Translations under genes and position numbers: made by a program
Part shown: one piece after another, positions 5,455 through 62,509 of the stretch
Numbering within the stretch: the stretch's first letter is position 1
How the letters are laid out: every line of letters begins with the position of its first letter
Source: Cladochytrium replicatum
Taxonomy: Eukaryota; Chytridiomycota; Chytridiomycetes; Cladochytriales; Cladochytriaceae
DNA length: 64,000 bases
NCBI GenBank assembly: GCA_025526935.1
Contig: JAHLKD010000053.1
Location: forward strand, 248,001 to 312,000
Direction: 5' to 3'
The notes under the pieces: model-generated
The model's input: the letters and a program-made list of their open reading frames with translations, nothing else
Database searches by the model: none
What the model was told of the DNA's origin: nothing

Positions 5455-8400
5455 TCATAAGGCTGTTGACCATCCACTCTCAGACAGCCCTCTTATCCCC
5501 TCCAGTCTAGATTTCAATTCCTTCTCGTTTCGCCCAGTGGGTTCCCACACCTCGAACTTTCTCACTAAATCTTCCGCTTCTGCTCGCAGCTCCCCAGTCG
5601 ACGCTAAACACTGTCCAAGAAGCTTTCCTACCGCGAACGCAAGCACATAGAAGTTGTTTTTCAATCCGTAGTTAGTGTTCGTCTGAGCACTGCCGCTAGG
5701 ACTGCTGGCACTGCTGTTTACCGTCCCGCTGCTGACCGACCCTCCTGTATTTCCACCACCCTGCGAAAACGGTTCTGACCGGAACTGCATTGGCGGGAAC
5801 GGGTTTGGTATTCGGGCTAAAGTGTTACGCAAGTTTGCAGGAACTAAATTATCCTCGTCAATCACCGACTGGTCAGTACTGATCCGCGATTCAGTAATCG
5901 AAGCTGGGTGACGTGTTTCTCGATCAAGTTTTTTGATGGGAACTAGCCTGGGGGAGTTGCTTCCGACCACTCCGTTCTGGCGCTTCTCAGGCTCAAGAAG
6001 AGCGACCGCTAGGCCCGGGGAACCCTTCCCACCGGCGTCCGATCTCGATACGCTTCTCCTCACTGCTGTTGTTGCCGCCTTGACATTCGCTAGTCCGATC
6101 CCCGAAGAAACCCTTCCACGGATTTCATCGGCATTGGATAATCTTTCCAACGACACACTCCCATTTGTCCGTTCATTTTTCTTTCGTTCAAAGTGTGTCC
6201 CCATTGACGTCGAGAGCCGGTCTCGAGTCAACGCAAAAGAAAGCGCGAGCTCGTACGTCTCGACTTCCTCGTACAGCGTCGAGTGCCCGCTCGTAACGCC
6301 GCCATAGAAAGATCCAGAGACGTACTTTGTAAGATGCAGCGCCAAGTCCATATCGGACAGACCACGGTTGCGGAGGGAGATCGAGAAGAGAACCAGGGAG
6401 GTCAAGAAGTCTTCGGTACCGCGGTAGTCGGTGCTTTCGATGTAGATGGCGCGTAGGATGGAGGGATGGTCGAAACCATGCATGAGTGCAGAGTACAACT
6501 GATTCCAAATGAATTAAAGAATTTTAAATCGAACCAAAGATGAGCAAGAATCATACTCACCGGAACAACCTCGTCAAACCATGAGGCAACTGCCACCACT
6601 TTTATTCCTGCTTGCAAGATAAAGTCCATTGCACTTCTGAAGCGCTTGTGGAGATCATTATCTGCGCTGCAGAGCTCAAAGAGCTCTCGAGCCGCAGGTG
6701 TTTCGATGTAATTGATCAGTTGCTTGATGGCAGGGAATGGACCTTTTATCGGATTAACTTGCAAATTAAACAAAACAGATCACTGACGTATAGAACCGTA
6801 TCACGCACCATGGGCGATGCCCGCCATCGCAAGGAAAACGACACGCTGCTCCATTGGCCGCACAATCCCTTCTTGTACCAGCAAAGCAAGAAGCATCGCG
6901 GTAACGACGACACCCTGGCTATGTGCCGCGAACATGAGCAGATCCGCGGTCTCGATACGGTCGCGAATACTTTGAGGGGGGATTGGGGGCAAGTACACAT
7001 GAGCGTCCTTTGGTGCAAAGTAGGGCGATGGTGGTGGAGACGGAGACGTTGGAGGGGGCAGTGCAAGGTCGGGTAGTGATGACGAGCGGGAAAGCGGAGC
7101 GGAGTCCCGCCGGATAGGAGGTGGAGTTGGTGGTGCTGATTGATTCGGAAACGGAGAGCCCGGAGCAGCAGAATGTGGTCGTTGGGACGCCTCTTCCTGG
7201 AGTAACGTGCTCAACCGACGATTAGCTTGCTGTGGCCAGCAGCCTATAACGGGAGGCGAAGGAGGTGAAGTTCCGGCTAAGCCATCAATACTAGCTGGAC
7301 CCGGAAGTTCTAGATTGGAGAGACGAGGAGAGACTGGTTTGCCACGGTCACTAAGTGTGGACATTCTTTTGTTGGGTTGAGTGATCGATCCTGTAGAAGA
7401 TCGGAGAGAATCATCTGAACCTCGGATTGGAAATCCAAGAGGCGTCACTGGCTGGGAAATGGAGCGGCGATGAGGTTTGTTGGCGATTGGTGAGCCGGGT
7501 TTAGCTGAGGTCGAGCTGTCGTTTGTTTGAAAGCCGGAATCGACATGATCGTATCCAGTGATCTGCCTAAAATGAACCGCAACTCGCTCATCTACCTTCC
7601 CCTCGAATTCAAGAGGAATAGGCGATATTGCATCGTGTGGTAGCGCAATTCCGTGTTGCTGGAAAAGGTATTGGCGAACCGCACGGTTGGCAAAATAAGC
7701 AAACTTCGGCGACACTCCTTTCGGCGGACCAGTAACTGAATGAAGATATTTTTAGCGGAATCCAGCAAGCGAACGAGATGTTATTACTCGAATGTAGCCA
7801 TTTTTGTGGGAACCATCCATGAATCCCAACAATGGTGACGTGATGAATGTCGTTGGCAGGGTGACGTATGTGATCCAACCCATCGGGAGAGACTCTCAAC
7901 TCCACCTCCTTCTCGTCTAAAGCCGGCGGTTGTAATTCATCAGATGGAGGAATTTCTTCCTGGGGGTAATGTGTTGGTATTGGTGGGGGAGAAATGGCAC
8001 CGAGGTCAGAAACTTCATTCGGCATGGGATTTATCTCAAGCGACGAATTTTTAGGCGTCTTTAAAAATTTCTGCAATCGCTGGAAGATACGTCGCGTGGC
8101 AGACCGACGTCGAATAGTCGTATCTTCACCTTCGCTCTCTCCGTCGGTAAGGATGAGTGGGTCGATCTCAGGCGGAGTTGTGTATGGGGGGGAAGAGTTG
8201 ATGGCCTCCTCATCCAAAGGAAATAGAGCACCGTCAGAGGTAAATTCCGGTGATGCTGACAGTCCATCTGCAGAAACGTCAACCGTGGTTTCATCGGTTG
8301 GAGTAGACGTGCCATCAAAGAACCATGGCAATACGACACCACGACGACTTCTTGCTGGTGAGCCGAACGGAGAAGATAATCTCCGAATGGTGGGGGAAGT

Positions 8401-17295: not shown

Positions 17296-17669
17296 ATGCT
17301 TTCTGTGATCTGATGATGCCCGCAATAATACATACAGCGATTCAACAATCCAATATTGAGGTGAATCCCTCAACAAGTTATTGATTGAGCAACACAGCAG
17401 CCTTCCCAAACCTGTCCCATTCTCTGTGATCTGATAGTCCAAGAATTCTCCGTCCCCTTCGTGCTCACGTGGACACGAGATCATCTCGACTTTCCGGTGG
17501 TTGAAACCCTCAGACTCTCAGACTCATTAAACATCTGTCTGTACAACGACTTTGAATCTTAGCTGTCTGTGTATTGCTATTTTGTAAATCAACCAGCAGT
17601 ATGTTATCTCACTTCCTGTGCTAGCACACCTCTCACTCACCTCGCTCCCCCAGCTCTAAGGAAAAAAAG

Positions 17670-19925
17670 ATGGCCGTGAACCCCTCCGCAAACCCTTCCA
17701 CCCTGTACGACAAAGTCTGGGCTCACCATGTCATCGACGAGACCCCCGACGGCACTGCCCTCATCTACATCGACCGCCATCTCGTCCACGAGGTGACCTC
17801 CCCTCAAGCCTTCGAGGGTCTCCGCCAGGCGTCCCGGAAAGTCCGCCGCCCAGACTGCACACTCGCCACTGTCGACCACAACATCCCCACAGCCTCCCGC
17901 AAGACCCTGAAAGACGTCAGCTCATTTGTGAAAGAGCCCGACTCGCGTCTGCAGTGCATGACTCTCGAGCAGAATGTTGAGGAGTTTGGACTCACATATT
18001 TCGGGCTCAAGGACGCGCGTCAGGGTATCGTGCACATCATCGGGCCAGAGCAAGGTTTCACTCTTCCTGGCACGACCGTGGTGTGCGGTGACTCCCACAC
18101 TTCGACCCACGGAGCGTTCGGTGCCCTCGCTTTCGGTATCGGTACGTCGGAAGTAGAACACGTCCTCGCTACGCAGACGCTCTTGATGAAGAAGGCCAAG
18201 AACATGCTGATCAAAGTGACGGGTAAACTCTCCGAGGGTGTCACCAGCAAGGATGTGGTCCTTCAGATCATCGGCACTATCGGAACCGCTGGTGGAACTG
18301 GTCACGTTCTCGAGTTTGCTGGTGAGGTTATCGAATCGCTTTCGATGGAAGCGCGCATGTCGATCTGCAACATGTCCATCGAAGCCGGTGCTCGCGCCGG
18401 TTTGATCGCTCCCGACGAGACAACATTCGAGTACATCAAGAACCGTCCGTTGGCTCCGAAGGGAGAGGAATGGGACCGAGCAGTCGCGTTCTGGCGCACC
18501 TTGAAGTCCGACGATGGTGCCAAGTTTGACACGGTTGTCGTCCTCCGCGGCGAAGACATTCCCCCAACAGTCACTTGGGGCACCTCTCCACAGGACGCTA
18601 TTTCGATCACCGATAGCGTTCCTGACCCGGCTTTGGCACCCAACTCAGAACGCAAAGCTGCGATGGAGCGTGCTCTCAAGTACATGGGTCTTACTCCCAA
18701 CCAACCCATGTCGACAATCAAAATCGACAAGGTGTTTATCGGCTCGTGCACAAACTCCCGCATGGAGGATCTTCGTTCAGCAGCAACCATCGCGTACGGT
18801 CGCAAAGTTGCACCTCACGTGCAAGCAATGATTGTACCGGGATCCGGTCTTGTAAAGAAGCAGGCAGAAGCTGAAGGCCTGGACCGCGTGTTTATAGAGG
18901 CCGGATTCGACTGGCGAGAAGCTGGTTGCTCAATGTGCTTGGGTATGAACCCTGACCAGCTCAAGCCGCAGGAAAGGTGCGCGTCAACTTCCAACCGCAA
19001 CTTTGAAGGTCGCCAGGGGGCAGGTGGTCGTACGCACTTGGTGTCGCCGGCAATGGCAGCTGCCGCAGCCATAGCAGGCCACCTTGTCGACGTACGGGAG
19101 TATATCCCAAGGAGTTCAACAAGCGCTCCACTCACCATCTCCCCTCTCGACCCCAAATCGTTCCTTGCCAAAGAAATCCCGGTCCCTCCAGCGTACACCC
19201 GGGCCGCCAAGACATCCACCGCCGCGGCAGCACCCACGACCAAAGCCGCTGCAGCACCAGCGGCAAGCGGCATTCCCAAGTTCACAATCCTCAAAGGCAC
19301 TGCCGCGCCTCTCGACATGCAAAACGTCGACACCGACATGATCATCCCAAAGCAATTCCTCAAGACCATCCAGCGCACCGGGCTCGGCAAGGCGCTCTTC
19401 CACCCGATCAGGTACATCCCCGGCACCGACGACCAGGAAGACCCGACCTTCATCCTCAACACCCCCGCCGCGCGCCACGCCTCGATCATGGTTGCAAACG
19501 ACAACTTTGGCTGTGGCTCCTCGCGCGAGCACGCCCCCTGGGCCCTTTCCGATTTTGGCATCCGGTGCGTCATCGCACCATCGTTCGCGGACATCTTTTT
19601 CAACAACTGTTTCAAGAACGGCATGCTTTGCGTCGTGTTGCCGGGCGAGGAAGTGCGCAAGTTGCTAGACTCGGGTGTGCAGGAGCTGGAGGTGGACCTT
19701 GAGAAACAGGTCGTGAGGGACGGGAAGGGTGGGGAGTGGAATTTTGAGGTGGACGCGTTCAGAAAGTTTTGCTTGATCAATGGGTTGGATGATATTGGGC
19801 TGACGTTGCAGAAGGAAGGAAAGATCACGGAGTTTGAGAAGGTGAGGACGGAACGGTTCCCGTGGTTGGATGGGCCTGGCGTTCGCAAGTTTGTTGTGGA
19901 GCCTGCCGGTTCGACGGATTGGTGA
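17670..19925 (+). CDS. LEU1: 3-isopropylmalate dehydratase (fused large and small subunits)
   Basis: A single exon of 751 residues, close to the length of fungal Leu1. It interconverts 2- and 3-isopropylmalate, the second step of leucine synthesis. The large-subunit part (about 1-490) has the aconitase-family 4Fe-4S cysteines: C360 in IGSCTNSR, and C420 and C423 in [12 protein letters not shown]. It also has the substrate motif [21 protein letters not shown] Pro/Ala/Thr-rich linker (about 500-535) leads to the small-subunit swivel domain, with [16 protein letters not shown] and [14 protein letters not shown]. All key residues are present. Codon use is strongly C/G-ending, as in highly expressed genes. 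The start is the first Met, in an aaaaaaagATGG context. Cytosolic in yeast; no targeting peptide is seen here. Confidence 0.97.
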
Positions 19926-21483: not shown

Positions 21484-22504
21484 AGATCTCCAACGCTTAC
21501 AGTATGCCTAAGAATGACACCCGCGACGGAAAACCAAGGCCTTTCGCTGGGCAAACGCTTGGGGAGTTCGATAAATACATGAAGATCGTTCAGAATTATG
21601 CAAACTTGAAAGGAGAAGCTGGAACTTTGCTCACAAAGTCGCCCTACCCAAAGCCGGAAGACTTTGTGAAAGAAGAGAAACCTGAACCGGCCTGAACGAC
21701 CATCTGCACTCGAAGAATACGACACAACAAATGATTTTGATTATGCCGTTAAAGAGTACGACGTAGCGTTGAAAGAGTACAACGCAATTGTGAACGACAA
21801 TCATCAACGATTGCAATCACATCGCGCTGAATTACAGATGTACGAACGATCTCAAGGACACAACAACGTTGCAAACAGTTGTCTTGACCAAAAGACTACC
21901 GAAAGCTCATGCTGCTCATGAGGTTTGTGTTTTACATCCCAACTCTTCTCATTCTTCTGCAGAGTGTAAACAACTCAAATATTTGATTGAGAAACATGCT
22001 TCCTCACATAAAGGAAATGCCAACAGTAAGACTGCAAACAATCGTGCCGCGTCAAAACCTAAGGATGCGAAGAACAACAAATTATCTTGCGATTTCTGTG
22101 GCAAATCTGGCCACACGCAGAATTTCTGCAGGAAACGCAAACTAGCCAAAAGTTTGAATGACGAGGAATGGAAACAGATAAAAGCATCTCGTGCTTCCTC
22201 CTCAACATCCCAGAACATGGATATCGATTCTCAGGAATCAGAACGTGGAGGTTTATATTATCTTCATGGAAGTTTGGATACTACTAATCCATTACTTAAA
22301 CACTCTTCCAAAATAGGTGCAGCTATTTTGACGAATCTTTCTAATTCTGCACTCTCTGTTGGCAAACAGAATGTTTTACCTGGTACCACTACAAACACTG
22401 CCCAAGAGCAGCAGACAACCATGTCTGGTGTAAGGTTTGACACAGTGAAGGACAACAATGTTTTCCCAAAAGATTCTAACAAAACTAGAGATTACGGGGG
22501 GTGA
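21484..22504 (+). pseudogene. Ty1/copia gag remnant
   Basis: Three segments in different frames carry a copia Gag. The N-terminus at 21504 reads GQTLGEFDKYMKIVQNYANL. A frame change follows at about 21693 (RPSALEEYDTTNDFDYAV). From 21869 comes the Gag C-terminus, with CVLHPNSSHSSAEC and the CCHC zinc knuckle CDFCGKSGHTQNFC (about 22090-22130). The middle of Gag, between about 21850 and 21890, is missing compared with a normal copia Gag. No aspartic-protease DSG motif is found before the integrase, so that region is deleted too. Confidence 0.8.
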
Positions 22505-24239
22505 AGTTTTAGACGAAGCTTCATCTGCAACATTAAGTCTATACTCCCAAACAATGGCTGATAATGGAGTAAACAACATTTCAGCTGTGACCATTGACAA
22601 ATTAGCTAGATTATACCAGCGATTTGGTCACATACATTTGCGGAAAATCCTGCAAACTTTACATTCTCTGGGAAAGAAACTGCCCAAAGTCAGGAGTGAT
22701 GCACTTGATTTTGTTAACTCGTCTATTTTACAGAACTGCATAATTTGCAATCAGACTAAGGCTGTACAAACTCCAATTTACTCAACGCTAAGTCCAGCAC
22801 TGAGGAAACTATATCGCCTACATACTGATGCAGTACCGATTGTCAGAAATGGCAAAACAATAGGTCACTGGCAGATTATTGTAGATGAATACAGTTCTCA
22901 CATCACAATCTACTTCTTGCAACGAAAGAGCGAAGCCTCTGATAGTATGCTAAGACACATCGCAGATGTTGAAAATAGATTTCTGCCACTTCACGTCTAT
23001 GAAGTGAGATCCGATTCTGGAGAACTATTGTCAAACCAATTCTTGACTTGGTGCAGTAACAAGGTACCACACATATATGCGCATCCTTCACCTGCATCAG
23101 TCAAAGGGCTGAATGGTCTTGCTGAACGGAATGTCCGTTCAATGAAAGAGATGTACAGGTCTATGCTGAAAACAGCTGGTCTTCCACACACTTTACAGTC
23201 CATCAAATTTGCCATCCTTTATGCTGCGACTGTCAAAAATTGTGTTTACCATTCTAGAACTAAGAATGTACCACATGCTGTTTACTTTGACAAGCTGATT
23301 GATCCGGCAATCATTCATACCTTTGGTACCCTGGTTAGTCTCTGGATCTCTCCAGAACAAAGGTCTAGTCGCAAAGTATCAGAGAAGTCAGAGCTAGGAC
23401 TATTTCTGGGTTATAAGGGTGAAGATATGAAAATCATTCTGAATCTTAATTCCAAATGCATAAGCGAATATTTTCATTTTACTTTTCATGAGGGAGTATT
23501 TGTTGGCTTAAACCCAACATCACAAACTTTAAATGACCTCACCAAACACTATCCTATGACTCAGGGTCAACATTTTGATATTTCAAAGTTACCTGATATG
23601 AATAGCGATAATGACAATACTACAGACTCAGATTCTGATGATAGCGCTAACACCTCATCTGATGAGGAGTTGGATCCCAATCAACGATTTTATCATCGAA
23701 TGGATATCTCACAAATGCATGTTACTCCTATAGCCCAACATGATTCAAATGTTGATGACGAGCATGATACCACCAACGACTATGACCATTCGTTAGACAT
23801 GAACGATGACACTTATGTACCACTTTCTGTACAACACGTACAAGAACAAAGTGAAGATGATTCCCAAAGTGATTTGGAAGATTTACAATGGATTGGTGAA
23901 GATGATGACAACGATTATGGATTTGTTGCACACAAAGCCAAACATCGCAAACTTAAAGGCAAACAACCTATGGTTACTCCAACAAACAGATTTTATCCCC
24001 AGCGAAGACATCCCTTGTTGAGACGTAATATCCCCAATGTCAATGTAAATGAGAAAGCAAAATCGAGTACACCAGACGTTCCTATACCTCAAGGACACTT
24101 GAGAAGTATTCCCAAAACAGTCCAGGAAGCTATGTCGCGACCTGATGAATGGCCATACTGGCTTGCAGCCATGTGTGAAGAAAATCAACGCATCTTGCCA
24201 AATGGGAACAACCTTCTCACTGGTAACAGACTCGCATAG
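22458..24239 (+). mobile_element. Ty1/copia integrase and start of reverse transcriptase
   Basis: A 593-codon open frame. The GAG-pre-integrase HHCC finger is visible (RFGHIHLRKILQTLH and ILQNCIICNQTK). The integrase core follows with its three ac acids in LHTDAVPI, VRSDSGEL and NGLAERNVRSMKEM. Next come the C-terminal GYKGED box and a long acidic, Asp/Ser-rich linker. The frame ends just after VQEAMSRPDEWPYWLAAMCEEN, the conserved entry to the copia reverse transcriptase. The RT palm itself is not present: the following bases belong to an ankyrin remnant. The element is incomplete and not autonomous. Confidence 0.9.
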
Positions 24240-58329: not shown

Positions 58330-58765
58330 TTGATCCATTCCGCTGCAGCTAAACACACTGATTTAGACGATCCTTGCTCAATTCACAAAGATGCTGCTCA
58401 TTCTAATGCAAGGGAGCGTCCTTCAAAAGACAAAGGCAAACAACCTGCACACAAGTTTCAAACGCTCCATCTTCTTCTGCTCCTCGTTGTAAGACTGAAG
58501 GGAAGAAACAAACTTGCAATTTCTGTGGAAAGGAAGGTCATATCCAAATCCACTGTCGCAAATTGAGAAAGTTGATGGATCTCACTTCTGCAGATCTGTG
58601 GAACTTGCAAGCTGTGCGAGCTTCTAAGAGCAAACACAAAGATTATTCATCTGACTCAGATGAAGAATGTTCAAATAAGTCAGCTCCGGCCAAGGAGGTA
58701 ATCTCACAAGTGCTAACGCAAGAGAATGCTCCTTGTGTGTATCGCCATAGGCTCCTTAAATAAGT
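58330..58765 (+). mobile_element. Copia gag fragment with zinc knuckle
   Basis: The plus strand reads DAAHSNARERPSKDKGKQPA, then after a frame change CNFCGKEGHIQIHC, a CX2CX4HX4C knuckle (58517-58560), and LRKLMDLTSADLWNLQAVRA. The order and spacing match the Gag C-terminus of the 21.5-kb element (CDFCGKSGHTQNFC, then LAKSLNDEEWKQIKASRA). The 58774-62310 element is inserted just after it. Confidence 0.75.
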
Positions 58766-58773
58766 GTACTGTC
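58766..58773. repeat. Left 8-bp target-site duplication
   Basis: GTACTGTC, identical to 62311-62318, directly outside the inverted terminus. Confidence 0.9.
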
Positions 58774-58788
58774 TAAGGATCGGTGGGT
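58774..58788 (+). repeat. Left terminal inverted repeat
   Basis: TAAGGATCGGTGGGT pairs with the right end with two mismatches. Confidence 0.85.
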
Positions 58789-58925
58789 TTTAGGGTCTTT
58801 CGGGTCAGGTCCGGGTCCATTGACCAAATGTACCCGACCCGAGTGCCGGGTTTTCATGGAAAATTTTCGGGTCGGGTCCGGGACGGGTATCAGGTCCAGT
58901 AGGAAAACCCTTCTCGGGTCAAAAG
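58784..58925. repeat. Left subterminal GGGTC/GACCC repeats
   Basis: Short motifs of the type GGGTC and GGTCCGGGTC recur many times in both orientations (ttcgggtcaggtccgggtc, cgggtcgggtccgggacggg). Arrays of short subterminal motifs are typical transposase-binding regions of hAT elements. Confidence 0.7.
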
Positions 58926-58979
58926 TCAGACCTGAGTAAAACCCGATGTGATAGAGAAGCTAAAACGAAGATATTGTTC

Positions 58980-60180
58980 TTTCTGTCCACGCGGACACTT
59001 TCCAAGAAGACGCAATATAAGTTTTGTATGTATCAAACAACTTTGCATCACAACAGACATTGAGGCATGCATTTTCTGTCCACCCGGACACTTTCTTAAC
59101 TCATTGACGGTACTTGAGTGATCTCTATCAAGTACAAACTAACATCTCTATCAATGTTACTAGCAATAAGATTCTGTCCACCCGGACACTTTCTCAACTC
59201 ATTGACGTACTTCAGTTATCTCTACCCAATACAACTAACCTCTCTATCAATGTTACTAGCAATAAGATTCTGTCCACCCGGACACTTTCTCAACTCATTG
59301 ACGTACTTCAGTTATCTCTACCCAATACAACTAACCTCTCTATCAATGTTACTAGCAATAAGATTCTGTCCACCCGGACACTTTCTCAACTCATTGACGG
59401 TACTTCAGTGATCTCTATCAAGTACAGCTAACCTCTCTACCAATGTTACTAGCAATAAGATTCTGTCCACCCGGACACTTTCTCAACTCATTGACGGTAC
59501 TTCAGTGATCTCTATCAAGTACAGCTAACCTCTCTATCAATGTTACTAGCAATAAGATTCTGTCCACCTGGACACTTTCTTAACTCATTGACGGTACTTG
59601 AGTGATCTCTATCAAGTACAACTAACATCTCTATCAATGTTACTAGCAATAAGATTCTGTCCACCCGGACACTTTCTCAACTCATTGACGGTACTTCAGT
59701 GATCTCTATCAAGTACAGCTAACCTCTCTATCAATGTTACTAGCAATAGGATTCTGTCCACCCGGACACTTTCTCAACTCATTGACGGTACTTCAGTAAT
59801 CTCTATCAGGTATAGCTAACCTCTCTACAAATACTACTAGCAATACGATTCTGTCCCACCTGGACACTTTCTCAACTCATTGACGGCGGTACTTCAGTGA
59901 TCTCTACCCAATACAACTAACCTCTCTATCAATGTTACTAGCCATAGGATTCTGTCCACCCGGACACTTTCTCAACTCATTGACGGTACTTCAGTGATCT
60001 CGATCCAATACAACTAACCTCTCTATCAATGTTACTAGCAATACGATTCTGTCCACCCGGACACTTTCTCAACTCATTGACGGTACTTCAGTGATCTCTA
60101 TCAAGTACAGCTAACCTCTATATCAATTTTACTAGCAATAAGATTCTGTCCACCCGGACAGAATCCTCTCTATCAATGTT
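58980..60180. repeat. 97-bp tandem repeat array, about 12 copies
   Basis: The motif ttctgtccacccggacac starts at about 58981, 59074, 59172, 59268, 59364, 59461, 59558, 59655, 59752, 59849, 59950, 60047 and 60144. Spacing is 96-98 bp (one unit 101). Each unit contains GTCC-ACCC-GGAC, a small hairpin, and then a conserved tttctcaactcattgacg. The first copy is more diverged. Open frames through the array are a by-product of the repetition. Confidence 0.92.
60142..60165. repeat. Perfect 10-bp hairpin that ends the array
   Basis: GATTCTGTCC, a 4-base loop ACCC, then GGACAGAATC. The last repeat unit is cut so that the short hairpin of the other units becomes a perfect 10-bp stem. Confidence 0.9.
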
Positions 60181-60327
60181 ACTAGCCAGTTTCTTCCCTA
60201 GCTTATTATTATTTTCAGATCAGGTAGAAAACTATAGTGTCAGGGAAGTATTATAGCATACATTCCTGTAACATTCCGGCTAAGAACACCGGGCCAGTAT
60301 CTTCCCACGACAAACAGTACAAACACC

Positions 60328-62010
60328 ATGCCTCGAACTACAAAGAAGCGAGCGTTAAAACAATCCAGACCATCATCTGAAAGAGAATCAAGTGCAGAAC
60401 CTGTGACTGCACCTGAAACATCTCTGGGATCGGGTTCTGAAGTGGCAGAAGCAGAAGTTGGCCTTGATGTCAAATCGACAGATGTCAAATCGACAGCTCC
60501 TTCAAAGAAACCGGCGCGACGTGGTACTAAAGGGGATGCTGACTATTTGCTCATCGACGGACTCTGTCCTGCTTCAGACATATGACTTTGGTATCGAAAA
60601 TTCAAAGCAAGCGGCCACAGCTACGACTCGGAGGACTTCATCAGCAACTGTCAAACAAATCGTGATGAATGCGGCCCAAGATTTGTTCTTCAAGGGTTGA
60701 TCGACCGACTTAACTCTGACAGCCAGCTAGTTCGTCAAGCCCTGAAAGAAATTCACGATGAATGCAGTGGACGAACGGAGTTCATAACAGCAGCAAACGC
60801 CTATCGTATGGAGTGCTTGAAAAGCTCTTCCTTTCAGAAGGAAACAACATTTCTGGACTTTTACAGGCGGCAGGGACACAAGTACGGCATTTACAGAGGA
60901 ATGCCTGTCACTGCAAAGGTTGACGAGTTCCAAGCGACCATCAAACGAGCAGATGAGGACCGTGAAAGGACAAAACAGGTCCTCAAACAGTCAGAACGAC
61001 TGTTGAACATGACAAAAGATCTTGAAGAGACTGCAATGAACGAGAGAAGGACCCGCATCGCAGCAGAAGTGCGAGAGAAGGCTCTCATTGATGAATTGGG
61101 CAGGGCGGGTGCATTGATTAAGCACGGCGAGCACGAAGACCTAGCAAGATTCAGGGAGATCACCGCTGCAATGGAAAGGGAGAAGCAGGCAACTTCCCAG
61201 GAGATTTCACAATGGAAATCACGTCTGACCGCCCTGGAGGGAGAGCTTGCTGCTCTGAAACGACAGGCTGGTCATTCAGAAGCTGCAGCACCTGCGGCGC
61301 CAAAATCAACAGGCGGCCTAATAAGCATATCGTCGGCTATCAAGGGGATTGGTAGAATTCCGAAGGTACATCAAACCAGTTCTCCAACGAGTTCCCTTGC
61401 ATTGCTTAGCCTGCAGCAGCACCGTCGTACGGCTATCCTTTTGGTGAAAGAGGTCATCCAGGGTATCTGCTTCCAGATGCATAAGATCAATGAGGTTATT
61501 TATGACCTTAAATTGCCGTCTCTTCCACCATCAATCAAGTACGTCAACGTAAACTACAAAGTCCTCTCCCAAAATGAGTTTTAAAGGCCCATATTTGTTG
61601 AATCAGATGACCGCTCAAGCCGAATATCAACTTCAAGTAGCAGTGCTCGGAGCAGCCTTACTCTTCTTAGGGTGCACATTTTGCTCGGAAACTGGATACG
61701 GCACAATAATTCACTAAGTACGTCTGCCACTTTCTATCGCATGTTCAGGGCATTAGTGGATGCTTATCCTTCTGAGTGGCTAAGGTTCTGGACGACATAC
61801 ATCGGGCATCTTTCGTCCATAACACTCCCTGAGGTGGATTGGAAACCTTGGAAGACAGGTTTAGCCAAGGATTTCATGCTTTCAAATGACGACATTGATC
61901 GGTTCATCAGGACTGGGTTGGCGAAGGACGTAACCAGTGGTGGATGGGACTCTGACGATATGAACCAGATACAGAAGCTGATTTGGGCTGTTCCACCTAT
62001 CAACTTGTGA
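60328..62010 (+). pseudogene. Novel coiled-coil protein of the TIR element, two in-frame stops
   Basis: One frame of 561 codons runs from ATG 60328 to TGA 62008-62010, broken only by TGA at 60583-60585 and TAA at 61582-61584. The three pieces stay in the same frame. The N-terminus is basic and Ser-rich (MPRTTKKRALKQSRPSSERE). The middle part reads SEDFISNCQTNRDECGPRFV and FYRRQGHKYGIYRGMPV. A long charged coiled coil follows (about codons 205-320; KQVLKQSERLLNMTKDLEET, LTALEGELAALKRQAG), then an Ala/Pro linker. The C-terminal segment is Trp-rich (AYPSEWLRFWTTYIGHLSSI, VDWKPWKTGLAKDFM). No DDE, hATC or recombinase motif is seen. The stops may be mutations, or removed with introns of a length divisible by three. 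Confidence 0.6.
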
Positions 62011-62139
62011 TTGCTCAGTGGAGTTTTGTTTCTTTTTACGATAGTGTTTCTAAAATACACACTGTCCACACAGACACAAAGTGTTCATGTAAATATCCGT
62101 GGTCTAACTCCAAATTCAATCAATCCTCTCCTGGGCAGC

Positions 62140-62310
62140 AAAAACCGGGCGGGTCAGGGTCGGGTACGGGTTTCAACCACTTCGGGTCCGGGTATTCCCT
62201 TTGTACCCGTCAGTGACCCGGCGGGTCCCCAGACAAACACGACCCGACCCAAATGGTTTGGTGCGGGTCACCACTGAAACCCGGACCCGACCCGGACCCG
62301 CCGAACCTTA
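62140..62310. repeat. Right subterminal GGGTC/GACCC repeats and terminus
   Basis: Dense GGGTC and GACCC motifs (ggcgggtcagggtcgggtac, acccggacccgacccgg) mirror the left end. The last 15 bases (62296-62310) are the inverse of the left terminus. Confidence 0.8.
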
Positions 62311-62318
62311 GTACTGTC
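62311..62318. repeat. Right 8-bp target-site duplication
   Basis: GTACTGTC, identical to the left copy. Confidence 0.9.
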
Positions 62319-62509
62319 ATTTTGGCTTTTCCTTCCGGAAGATCTGGATTGCAGCGATAAGGTTTGACTCTTTCTTCTCACAGGCGTAGCGAAGCATAAT
62401 CATGCTAAGCTGTGCGTGAGATCTAGCTCTCCTCAACAGGATTGTCGTTGCACATGATTCCCGCGAACGCGTTAATCATATGTAAACCTTTGCTCTGATC
62501 TGATCCGGG

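What the first reader, a model, noticed from the sequence alone, without database searches (positions are those of the whole stretch)
58766..62318. Complete TIR element with 8-bp duplication but no recognisable transposase
Seen directly: 15-bp inverted ends (13/15 identical), an exact GTACTGTC on both sides, and subterminal GGGTC-rich blocks. Known: hAT and KDZ transposons make 8-bp duplications, and hAT ends carry short subterminal motifs. Inference: a non-autonomous unit that moved recently enough to keep its duplication intact. It carries a minisatellite and an unknown protein, which is not the layout of a simple internal-deletion derivative.
Basis: partly seen in the sequence, partly recalled or inferred. 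Interest (0 to 1): 0.85.

Follow-up and report, generated by a model that had tools for sequence, protein, structure and literature searches.

The report
Transposase-less copy of fungal hAT transposon
The segment is a jumping piece of DNA that has lost its own jumping enzyme but belongs to a large, recently active family whose complete members carry that enzyme plus a second, unknown gene that natural selection appears to have kept working.

Summary
The element lies at 58774-62310, with 15-bp ends (13/15) and an exact GTACTGTC on both sides; 12 of 12 empty-site copies read carry one GTACTGTC with continuous flanks. The 50.5-Mb genome (apparently a chytrid-like fungus) holds 279 left-end and 296 right-end matches, control 0. 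In 36 of 36 loci compared, similarity stops at the proposed ends.

Complete relatives (7,110 bp in L049) encode an 819-aa hAT transposase, so this is hAT, not KDZ, and the window copy is a deletion derivative lacking the transposase. The 'unknown protein' and minisatellite are parts of the complete element: opposed 97-bp arrays flank the transposase gene, and a second gene (ORF2, 560 aa) follows. A 2,958-bp copy of the same layout has its own perfect duplication, so this class moves.

ORF2 has no relative in the libraries searched, yet differences shared by three or more of 44 copies are strongly synonymous (N/S 0.25 of neutral) while private ones are near neutral. Array units hold the palindrome TGTCCACCCGGACA. 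My best guess, an inference, is that ORF2 binds it as an anti-silencing or regulatory helper. New variant of a known kind.

The parts
58766..58773 (.). left target-site duplication GTACTGTC
   Evidence: single copy of GTACTGTC in 12 of 12 empty sites read
58774..62310 (+). non-autonomous hAT element, 3,537 bp
58774..58788 (+). left terminal inverted repeat TAAGGATCGGTGGGT
   Evidence: 279 genome matches to the 24-bp left end with up to 2 mismatches, control 0
62296..62310 (-). right terminal inverted repeat (reverse complement TAAGGTTCGGCGGGT)
   Evidence: 296 genome matches to the 26-bp right end with up to 2 mismatches, control 0
58793..58920 (+). left subterminal GGGTC-rich block, candidate transposase-binding repeats
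   Evidence: positions; binding is inference from maize Ac (passages)
62151..62299 (-). right subterminal GGGTC/GACCC-rich block
58984..58997 (+). palindrome TGTCCACGCGGACA at the left edge, before the array proper
59074..60160 (+). minisatellite of 97-bp units, each starting with a palindrome of TGTCCACCCGGACA type
60139..60165 (.). end of the array, a longer palindrome (GATTCTGTCC/GGACAGAATC) leading into the DNA upstream of ORF2; same junction in L049-L051 and L114
60328..62010 (+). ORF2 pseudogene: ATG at 60328, TGA at 60583-60585 (CGA in L049), TAA at 61582-61584 (TTA in L049), normal stop at 62008-62010
62063..62076 (+). isolated palindrome TGTCCACACAGACA just 3' of ORF2
62311..62318 (.). 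right target-site duplication GTACTGTC
58704..62479 (.). dispersed host repeat interrupted by the element (58704-58773 continues at 62319; 62479 is only the end of the query)
   Evidence: 42 matches; 12 of 12 read are empty sites

Best explanation
The segment is a non-autonomous member of a high-copy hAT cut-and-paste transposon family. The complete element (7,110 bp in L049) is: TIR and GGGTC-rich end, forward 97-bp array, 819-aa hAT transposase, opposed 97-bp array plus a short forward stretch, ORF2, GGGTC-rich end and TIR. The window copy keeps both ends, a forward array and ORF2 but has lost the transposase and the opposed array. The likely route is recombination or slippage between forward units on either side of the transposase gene (inferred). 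It was then pasted into a dispersed repeat with an 8-bp duplication (shown), by transposase supplied from complete copies (inferred). ORF2 is broken at two codons. For ORF2 the best reading is a helper kept for the transposon's own spread, perhaps binding the array palindrome (purifying selection supported by data; binding inferred). The confidence given is for the element's identity and origin; for the ORF2 helper role it is about 0.55, for palindrome binding about 0.3.
For: Exact duplication and unique structure. Single GTACTGTC in 12 of 12 empty sites read. Similarity stops at the ends in 36 of 36 loci. 279 left and 296 right ends, control 0. L049-L051 have the same ends and both genes. Transposase: PF05699 72.6 bits against cut-off 21.4, Hermes chains E 2e-12; D362, R469, W470 invariant and D294, C394, H397 nearly invariant in an alignment with 10 of the 24 relatives found; a glutamate aligned with Hermes. 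44 of 55 scored transposase matches have no stop. Perfect 8-bp duplications, all different, in 10 of the 14 two-gene elements whose two ends were both read (20 probed of 30 listed), and in L049, L061, L114 and the window. Transposase-to-ORF2 gap varies in about 97-bp steps. L114 is a second transposase-less copy with its own duplication. Of 49 pairs of exact ends, 6 are 2.2-3.54 kb and 33 are 5.4-7.8 kb.
Against: The deletion breakpoints cannot be placed: the window array holds unit types that in L049 lie in the opposed array, so more than one step is likely. Of 20 two-gene elements probed, 4 have non-matching flanks and 6 had no left end in the stretch read; L050 and L060 also lack matching flanks and L051 matches at 7 of 8. 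No excision or transposition was observed. ORF2 binding to the palindrome is untested, and other parts of the array unit vary as little as the palindrome.
Confidence: 0.94

Rival explanations
1. ORF2 is a passenger: a host gene caught by the hAT element and amplified with it, without a role for the transposon.
For: Fungal hAT elements are known to have caught and amplified histone H3 (PMC6710886, abstract and passages). ORF2 has no known domain. The ORF2 5' part is missing in L060 and L061, and L061 has a perfect duplication, so ORF2 is not needed in cis.
Against: Variants shared by 3 or more of 44 ORF2 rows are 10 N, 16 S, 0 stop against 17.5, 7.0, 1.5 expected (P 0.00015); without CpG changes 7 N, 8 S (P 0.011); singletons are near neutral (142 N, 66 S, 12 stop; P 0.10). 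Source copies thus seem to have been selected for a working ORF2. No host homologue was seen, but the genome search scores only the best candidates and could not have ranked a weak one.
Confidence: 0.25
2. The arrays and palindrome are by-products of slippage and concerted copying, with no bound protein.
For: Units are homogenised and copy number varies. The array end is itself a palindrome. The palindrome ranks only 8th lowest in variation of 84 14-bp windows of the unit.
Against: Palindromes outside the arrays in L049: 2 found against 0.02 expected in 4,882 bp (the one at position 211 was left out of that count), all near a gene or array border. The palindrome is intact in 66 of 71 units found without using it, though units are related and not independent.
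Confidence: 0.35
3. The window copy is a KDZ element or an unrelated MITE-like unit mobilised by some other transposase.
Against: Copies with the same ends and a right half 97.8-98.2% identical encode a hAT transposase.
Confidence: 0.01
4. Assembly artefact: collapsed or chimeric repeats made the structure.
For: Long opposed arrays are hard to assemble; some copies show swapped flanks.
Against: The 8-bp duplication, 12 of 12 empty sites and a second copy of the same layout with its own duplication are not expected from mis-joins.
Confidence: 0.02

Closest known systems
Maize Ac/Ds, Ds-del and Ds2 derivatives (PMC3260210, passages seen)
   Same: Non-autonomous copies sharing TIRs and subterminal short repeats with an autonomous hAT element; 8-bp duplications.
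   Different: Ac encodes a transposase; here the complete element encodes two proteins and the derivative keeps the second gene and an array.
TET+ hAT7 elements of Puccinia (PMC12730594, abstract, section 4.2 and passages)
   Same: Fungal hAT elements with a transposase and a second gene, mostly undisrupted, proposed to counter methylation-based silencing.
   Different: hAT7 make 7-bp duplications and carry a TET/JBP gene; here duplications are 8 bp and ORF2 has no TET or other Pfam domain.
Arabidopsis VANDAL elements with VANC anti-silencing proteins (PMC5735166, abstract part and passages)
   Same: A non-transposase protein encoded by a DNA transposon, with short motifs amplified as tandem repeats in its non-coding DNA.
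   Different: VANDALs are Mutator-like (recalled; PMC6446971 seen in a listing only); no sequence relationship is known; no binding or demethylation is shown here.
Fungal hAT elements with captured histone H3 (PMC6710886, abstract and passages)
   Same: High-copy fungal hAT with 8-bp duplications carrying an extra gene.
   Different: In P. fijiensis the amplified H3 copies are inactivated by RIP; here 91 of 123 matched ORF2 stretches have no stop and shared variants look selected.

Membership tests
hAT superfamily (as a non-autonomous member) | 8-bp target-site duplication | tested here: met
   window exact; 10 of 14 two-end elements exact; L049, L061, L114 exact; 12 of 12 empty sites
hAT superfamily (as a non-autonomous member) | short terminal inverted repeats shared with an autonomous-type partner | tested here: met
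hAT superfamily (as a non-autonomous member) | partner transposase with hAT dimerisation domain | tested here: met
   PF05699 72.6 bits, cut-off 21.4; PF14372 23.6 bits, below its cut-off of 27; Hermes E 2e-12
hAT superfamily (as a non-autonomous member) | DDE catalytic residues, CxxH and RW motifs in the partner | tested here: met
   D362, R469, W470 invariant; D294, C394, H397 in 90% or more of the 11-row alignment; E aligned with Hermes. The roles of these residues are recalled.
hAT superfamily (as a non-autonomous member) | subterminal repeats bound by the transposase | not testable with these tools
   GGGTC/GACCC clusters present; binding not testable
hAT superfamily (as a non-autonomous member) | mobilised in trans by the partner | not testable with these tools
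   needs an excision or transposition assay
KDZ | KDZ transposase in the complete element | tested here: not met
   only the two hAT families match the transposase at E <= 1 in Pfam
Internal-deletion derivative (Ds-del type) | sequence colinear with the complete element apart from deleted internal DNA | tested here: met
   left 1,000 bp and right 2,367 bp align to L049 at 93.1% and 97.8%; array unit order partly rearranged
TET+ hAT7 | TET/JBP dioxygenase gene | tested here: not met
   no Pfam family above cut-off in ORF2
TET+ hAT7 | 7-bp duplication | tested here: not met
   8-bp duplications
VANDAL/VANC-type anti-silencing | VANC sequence relationship | tested here: inconclusive
   no Pfam family above cut-off and no homologue at E <= 1 among the 7,998 candidates scored; VANC sequences were not compared directly
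VANDAL/VANC-type anti-silencing | sequence-specific binding to tandemly repeated motifs and loss of methylation | not testable with these tools
   repeated palindromes present; binding and methylation not measurable here

The most novel reading that the evidence does not exclude
ORF2 is the founding member of a new class of transposon-encoded, sequence-specific DNA-binding proteins: a coiled-coil dimer that binds the TGTCCACCCGGACA palindrome repeated every 97 bp in opposed arrays around the transposase gene and shields the family from CpG methylation (a fungal hAT analogue of VANC, evolved independently). Transposase-less copies such as the window's would then keep ORF2 and the arrays because they remain protected and help protect the family.
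Probability: 0.25. Interest if true: 0.8.

Novelty: new variant of a known kind. Interest (0 to 1): 0.5.

Why it matters
The window copy alone is an ordinary deletion derivative. The family is not quite ordinary: a hAT element in an early-diverging fungus with two genes, the second without detected relatives yet apparently selected, and palindromic arrays next to both genes. With 279 left-end matches, many near-identical copies, documented empty sites and CpG-type decay, it is a system in which the question 'how does a DNA transposon escape methylation-based silencing in fungi?' could be tested directly. The opposed arrays also make a natural experiment in deletion and flank exchange between copies.

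Tried and rejected
ORF2 function by sequence: Pfam gave only sub-threshold coiled-coil hits; PDB none at E <= 1; 5.8 billion proteins none at E <= 1 among the 7,998 candidates scored, while the transposase found 24 at E <= 1e-5 in the same library, so the library holds fungal hAT relatives but not this species' transposase. Viral contigs: none for either protein. PHROGs, NCBIfam and PADLOC were not searched. ORF2 structure (window copy, both stops read through as arbitrary residues): mean pLDDT 45.3, pTM 0.27, only 78 of 560 residues at 70-90, about residues 221-310; too poor for a fold search, so none was run. A deeper ORF2 subfamily: querying with the most decayed copy L115 (5.2% from L049) returned the same family at 91-94% and one 83% stretch (C32:7550-8393) among 42 rows from 40 scored of 533 candidates, so no old subfamily was seen. 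Rfam on the window: 0 matches. A transposase selection test was not made: too few distinct full copies were held. Target-site consensus: looked at by eye only, no claim.

Literature: nine of ten searches used. I saw no paper describing this element, or a hAT with such arrays and such a second gene, in the listings of those nine searches; the library lacks most subscription journals, and Repbase was not available.

Notes against outputs: a note says 9 perfect duplications and about 46 stop-free transposases; searches show 10 of 14 and 44 of 55, and the report uses those. Searches were scripts that stopped with an error; they were corrected (the L114 duplication and length were printed before it stopped). 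In one search the two second stretches of the ORF2 list (121 of 123 rows used) were left out; the hAT-domain list was entered without the rows already in the transposase list (98 of 150).
Full report
WHAT WAS CLAIMED AND WHAT IS THERE. The 8-bp duplication GTACTGTC flanks 58774-62310 exactly, the ends match at 13 of 15 positions, and no other pair of this kind exists in the window or in 30 Markov versions of it. The GGGTC/GACCC blocks and the 97-bp minisatellite at 59074-60160 are as described. No transposase was recognised inside.

COPIES, BOUNDARIES, EMPTY SITES. The left 150 bp and the right 172 bp (each with its 8-bp flank; the right query runs 7 bp further) each find 40 scored places, out of 363 and 407 first-look candidates. 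Pattern counts are whole: 279 left ends (24 bp, up to 2 mismatches) and 296 right ends (26 bp, up to 2 mismatches), with 0 for each reversed-pattern control. Similarity stops at the proposed ends: mean inside/outside identity is 0.993/0.286 for the 29 right-end loci held and 0.957/0.295 for the 7 left-end loci held; over these 36 the outside value never exceeds 0.47 and the inside value is never below 0.80. The joined flanks of the window copy find 42 matches from 40 scored of 576 candidates. I read the 12 loci returned; 12 of 12 cross the junction with one GTACTGTC. So the copy inserted into a dispersed repeat.

THE COMPLETE ELEMENT. L049 (7,110 bp between the ends, duplication GCTCTCAC), L050 and L051 carry the same ends and two genes. 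Only L049 of the three has both open: in L050 the ORF2 frame is split, and in L051 the transposase has a stop and ORF2 is interrupted by other DNA. Gene 1 is an 819-aa stop-to-stop frame with a hAT dimerisation domain (72.6 bits, cut-off 21.4), similarity to Hermes (E 2e-12) and conserved catalytic-type residues (10 of the 24 relatives aligned). Its best relative is a Rhizophagus protein at 32% identity. Of 55 scored places (of 1,127 candidates) 44 have no stop. Gene 2 (ORF2) has a 590-aa frame, 560 aa from its first ATG. With the 332-aa piece of the window copy as query, 91 of 123 matched stretches (121 scored places of 815 candidates) have no stop. A forward array precedes the transposase gene; an opposed array of 11 units in L049, 9 in L050 and 3 in L051 follows it; then a short forward stretch leads into ORF2. 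The distance from transposase to ORF2 varies in about 97-bp steps among the 30 of 55 places where both were scored. Two further copies (L060, L061) keep the transposase but lack the 5' part of ORF2.

WHAT THE WINDOW COPY IS. Its left 1,000 bp and right 2,367 bp align to L049 at 93.1% and 97.8%; the transposase and opposed array are gone. L114 has the same layout in 2,958 bp, with fewer array units, its own perfect duplication GTAGACAC, and no stop in the ORF2 query region. Among 49 paired exact ends, 6 are 2.2-3.54 kb, 33 are 5.4-7.8 kb, 1 is 4.5 kb and 9 are longer, up to 14.3 kb. The pairing used the 100 listed exact left ends and 83 of the 100 listed exact right ends (those on C1-C53), so it is not the whole family, and the longest pairs may hold nested elements. 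Four of the six short ones (C9, C10, C50 and the window) have a scored ORF2 match inside. The simplest origin is loss of the transposase between forward units on either side (inferred). The window array also contains unit types that L049 has only in the opposed array, so breakpoints cannot be fixed and more than one step is likely.

TRANSPOSITION. Of 30 elements with both genes scored, I probed 20. Both ends were read in 14, and 10 of these have perfect 8-bp duplications, all different; 4 do not match, and in 6 the left end was outside the stretch read. L049, L061, L114 and the window also have perfect duplications; L051 matches at 7 of 8; L050 and L060 do not match. L050 and the opposed element at C101:189-196 kb carry each other's flank (GCCAGTAC and GCCGTATC). 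That is what an inversion between opposed copies would leave, or an assembly error.

IS ORF2 A WORKING GENE? I aligned 50 rows (the L049 reference plus 49 loci) and dropped 6 rows of the same places, leaving 44, many of them partial. Variants in one copy: 142 N, 66 S, 12 stop against 151.0, 57.4, 11.6 expected (P 0.10). In two copies: 19 N, 10 S, 2 stop against 19.6, 9.3, 2.1 (P 0.46), which is neutral-like; 20 of those 31 are CpG changes that can recur. In three or more copies: 10 N, 16 S, 0 stop against 17.5, 7.0, 1.5 (P 0.0004, 0.00015 with more trials). Without CpG changes: three or more copies 7 N, 8 S (P 0.011); two or more 13 N, 13 S (P 0.004). Without the three most decayed copies, three or more: 6 N, 10 S (P 0.002). 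Copies decay nearly freely after insertion, but source copies seem to have been selected to keep ORF2. The null model treats sites as independent, insertions were dropped from the alignment, and the sample leans to well-conserved copies, so the size of the effect is rough. Of 16 premature stops in 12 distinct copies, 9 are CGA to TGA. Single-copy CpG transitions are 56 of 166 possible, against 26 of 648 for other GC-to-AT transitions. That fits CpG methylation of these elements (inferred). The window copy's ORF2 is broken by TGA at 60583 and TAA at 61582.

THE PALINDROME. Array units begin with TGTCCACCCGGACA or a close form. In 71 units of six elements found by their far 30 bp, the following palindrome is intact in 66, has one mismatch in 4 and a 1-bp insertion in 1. 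In L049 three copies lie outside the arrays: at element position 211, at 1066 (about 40-50 bp before the transposase ATG) and at 6863 (about 50 bp after the ORF2 stop). For the last two, 0.02 were expected in the 4,882 bp scanned; the one at 211 was left out of that count. The 19-bp extended form occurs 2,454 times in the genome, control 0. Against a special role: other stretches of the unit vary as little (the palindrome ranks 8th of 84 windows). ORF2 has a predicted long helical stretch (residues about 195-316; mean pLDDT 67-80 over 221-310, in an otherwise poor model), which would suit a dimer on a palindrome. Binding is inference only.

HOST. The window's 3-isopropylmalate-dehydratase-like protein (17625-19922) has its best species-named relatives in chytrids (Spizellomyces 69%, Powellomyces 67%, Gaertneriomyces 67-68%; 120 of 8,000 rows listed); a higher-scoring 60% match bears a marine transcriptome label. 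The genome is therefore probably an early-diverging, chytrid-like fungus. The genome itself is unnamed.

COMPARISON. As a non-autonomous hAT member the copy meets every feature that could be tested. KDZ is excluded. What it works like: Ds deletion derivatives of Ac (PMC3260210). What the family resembles: hAT7 elements with a TET gene in rusts (PMC12730594), VANDAL elements with VANC proteins and tandem target motifs (PMC5735166), and fungal hAT elements with captured histone H3 (PMC6710886). No sequence link of ORF2 to TET or histone domains was found; VANC was not compared directly. I saw abstracts, passages and one section of these papers, not the whole texts.

VERDICT. Ordinary as a single copy; a new variant of a known kind as a family, because of the apparently selected second gene without detected relatives and the palindromic arrays.

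Noticed in passing
L050 (C101:172100-180000) and C101:189304-196429 (L088, L089): Two opposed elements carry each other's 8-bp flank (GCCAGTAC/GCCGTATC), as an inversion of about 10 kb between them would leave; an assembly error is not excluded.
   Followed up: partly
L060 (C8) and L061 (C23): Two 5,911-bp copies with an intact transposase, the same ORF2 5' deletion and the same right flank but different left flanks: segmental duplication or recombination.
   Followed up: partly
window 58407-58773 and 62319-62479: The insertion target is a dispersed repeat (42 matches, some 300-360 bp apart); a CCHC zinc-knuckle open frame of retroelement type (by eye) ends just upstream at 58763.
   Followed up: partly
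L062-L101 (flanks of two-gene elements): By eye, several elements have flanks that look like the family's own DNA: the 97-bp array (C56, C13, C14) and the region upstream of ORF2 (C104), so nested insertions seem common.
   Followed up: no
C32:7550-8393: An 83% identical ORF2 stretch, the most diverged relative seen; may belong to an older subfamily.
   Followed up: no
window 22449-24236: 596-aa open frame with a weak retroviral-polymerase SH3-like match (26.3 bits, just under its cut-off of 27), probably a retroelement fragment.
   Followed up: no
L114, element positions 302-597; window 59850-59950: Array units with three or four extra bases (GACGGCGGTAC) occur in the two transposase-less copies but not in the arrays printed for L049-L051 (the opposed arrays of L050 and L051 were not printed), hinting at shared ancestry of the transposase-less class.
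   Followed up: no
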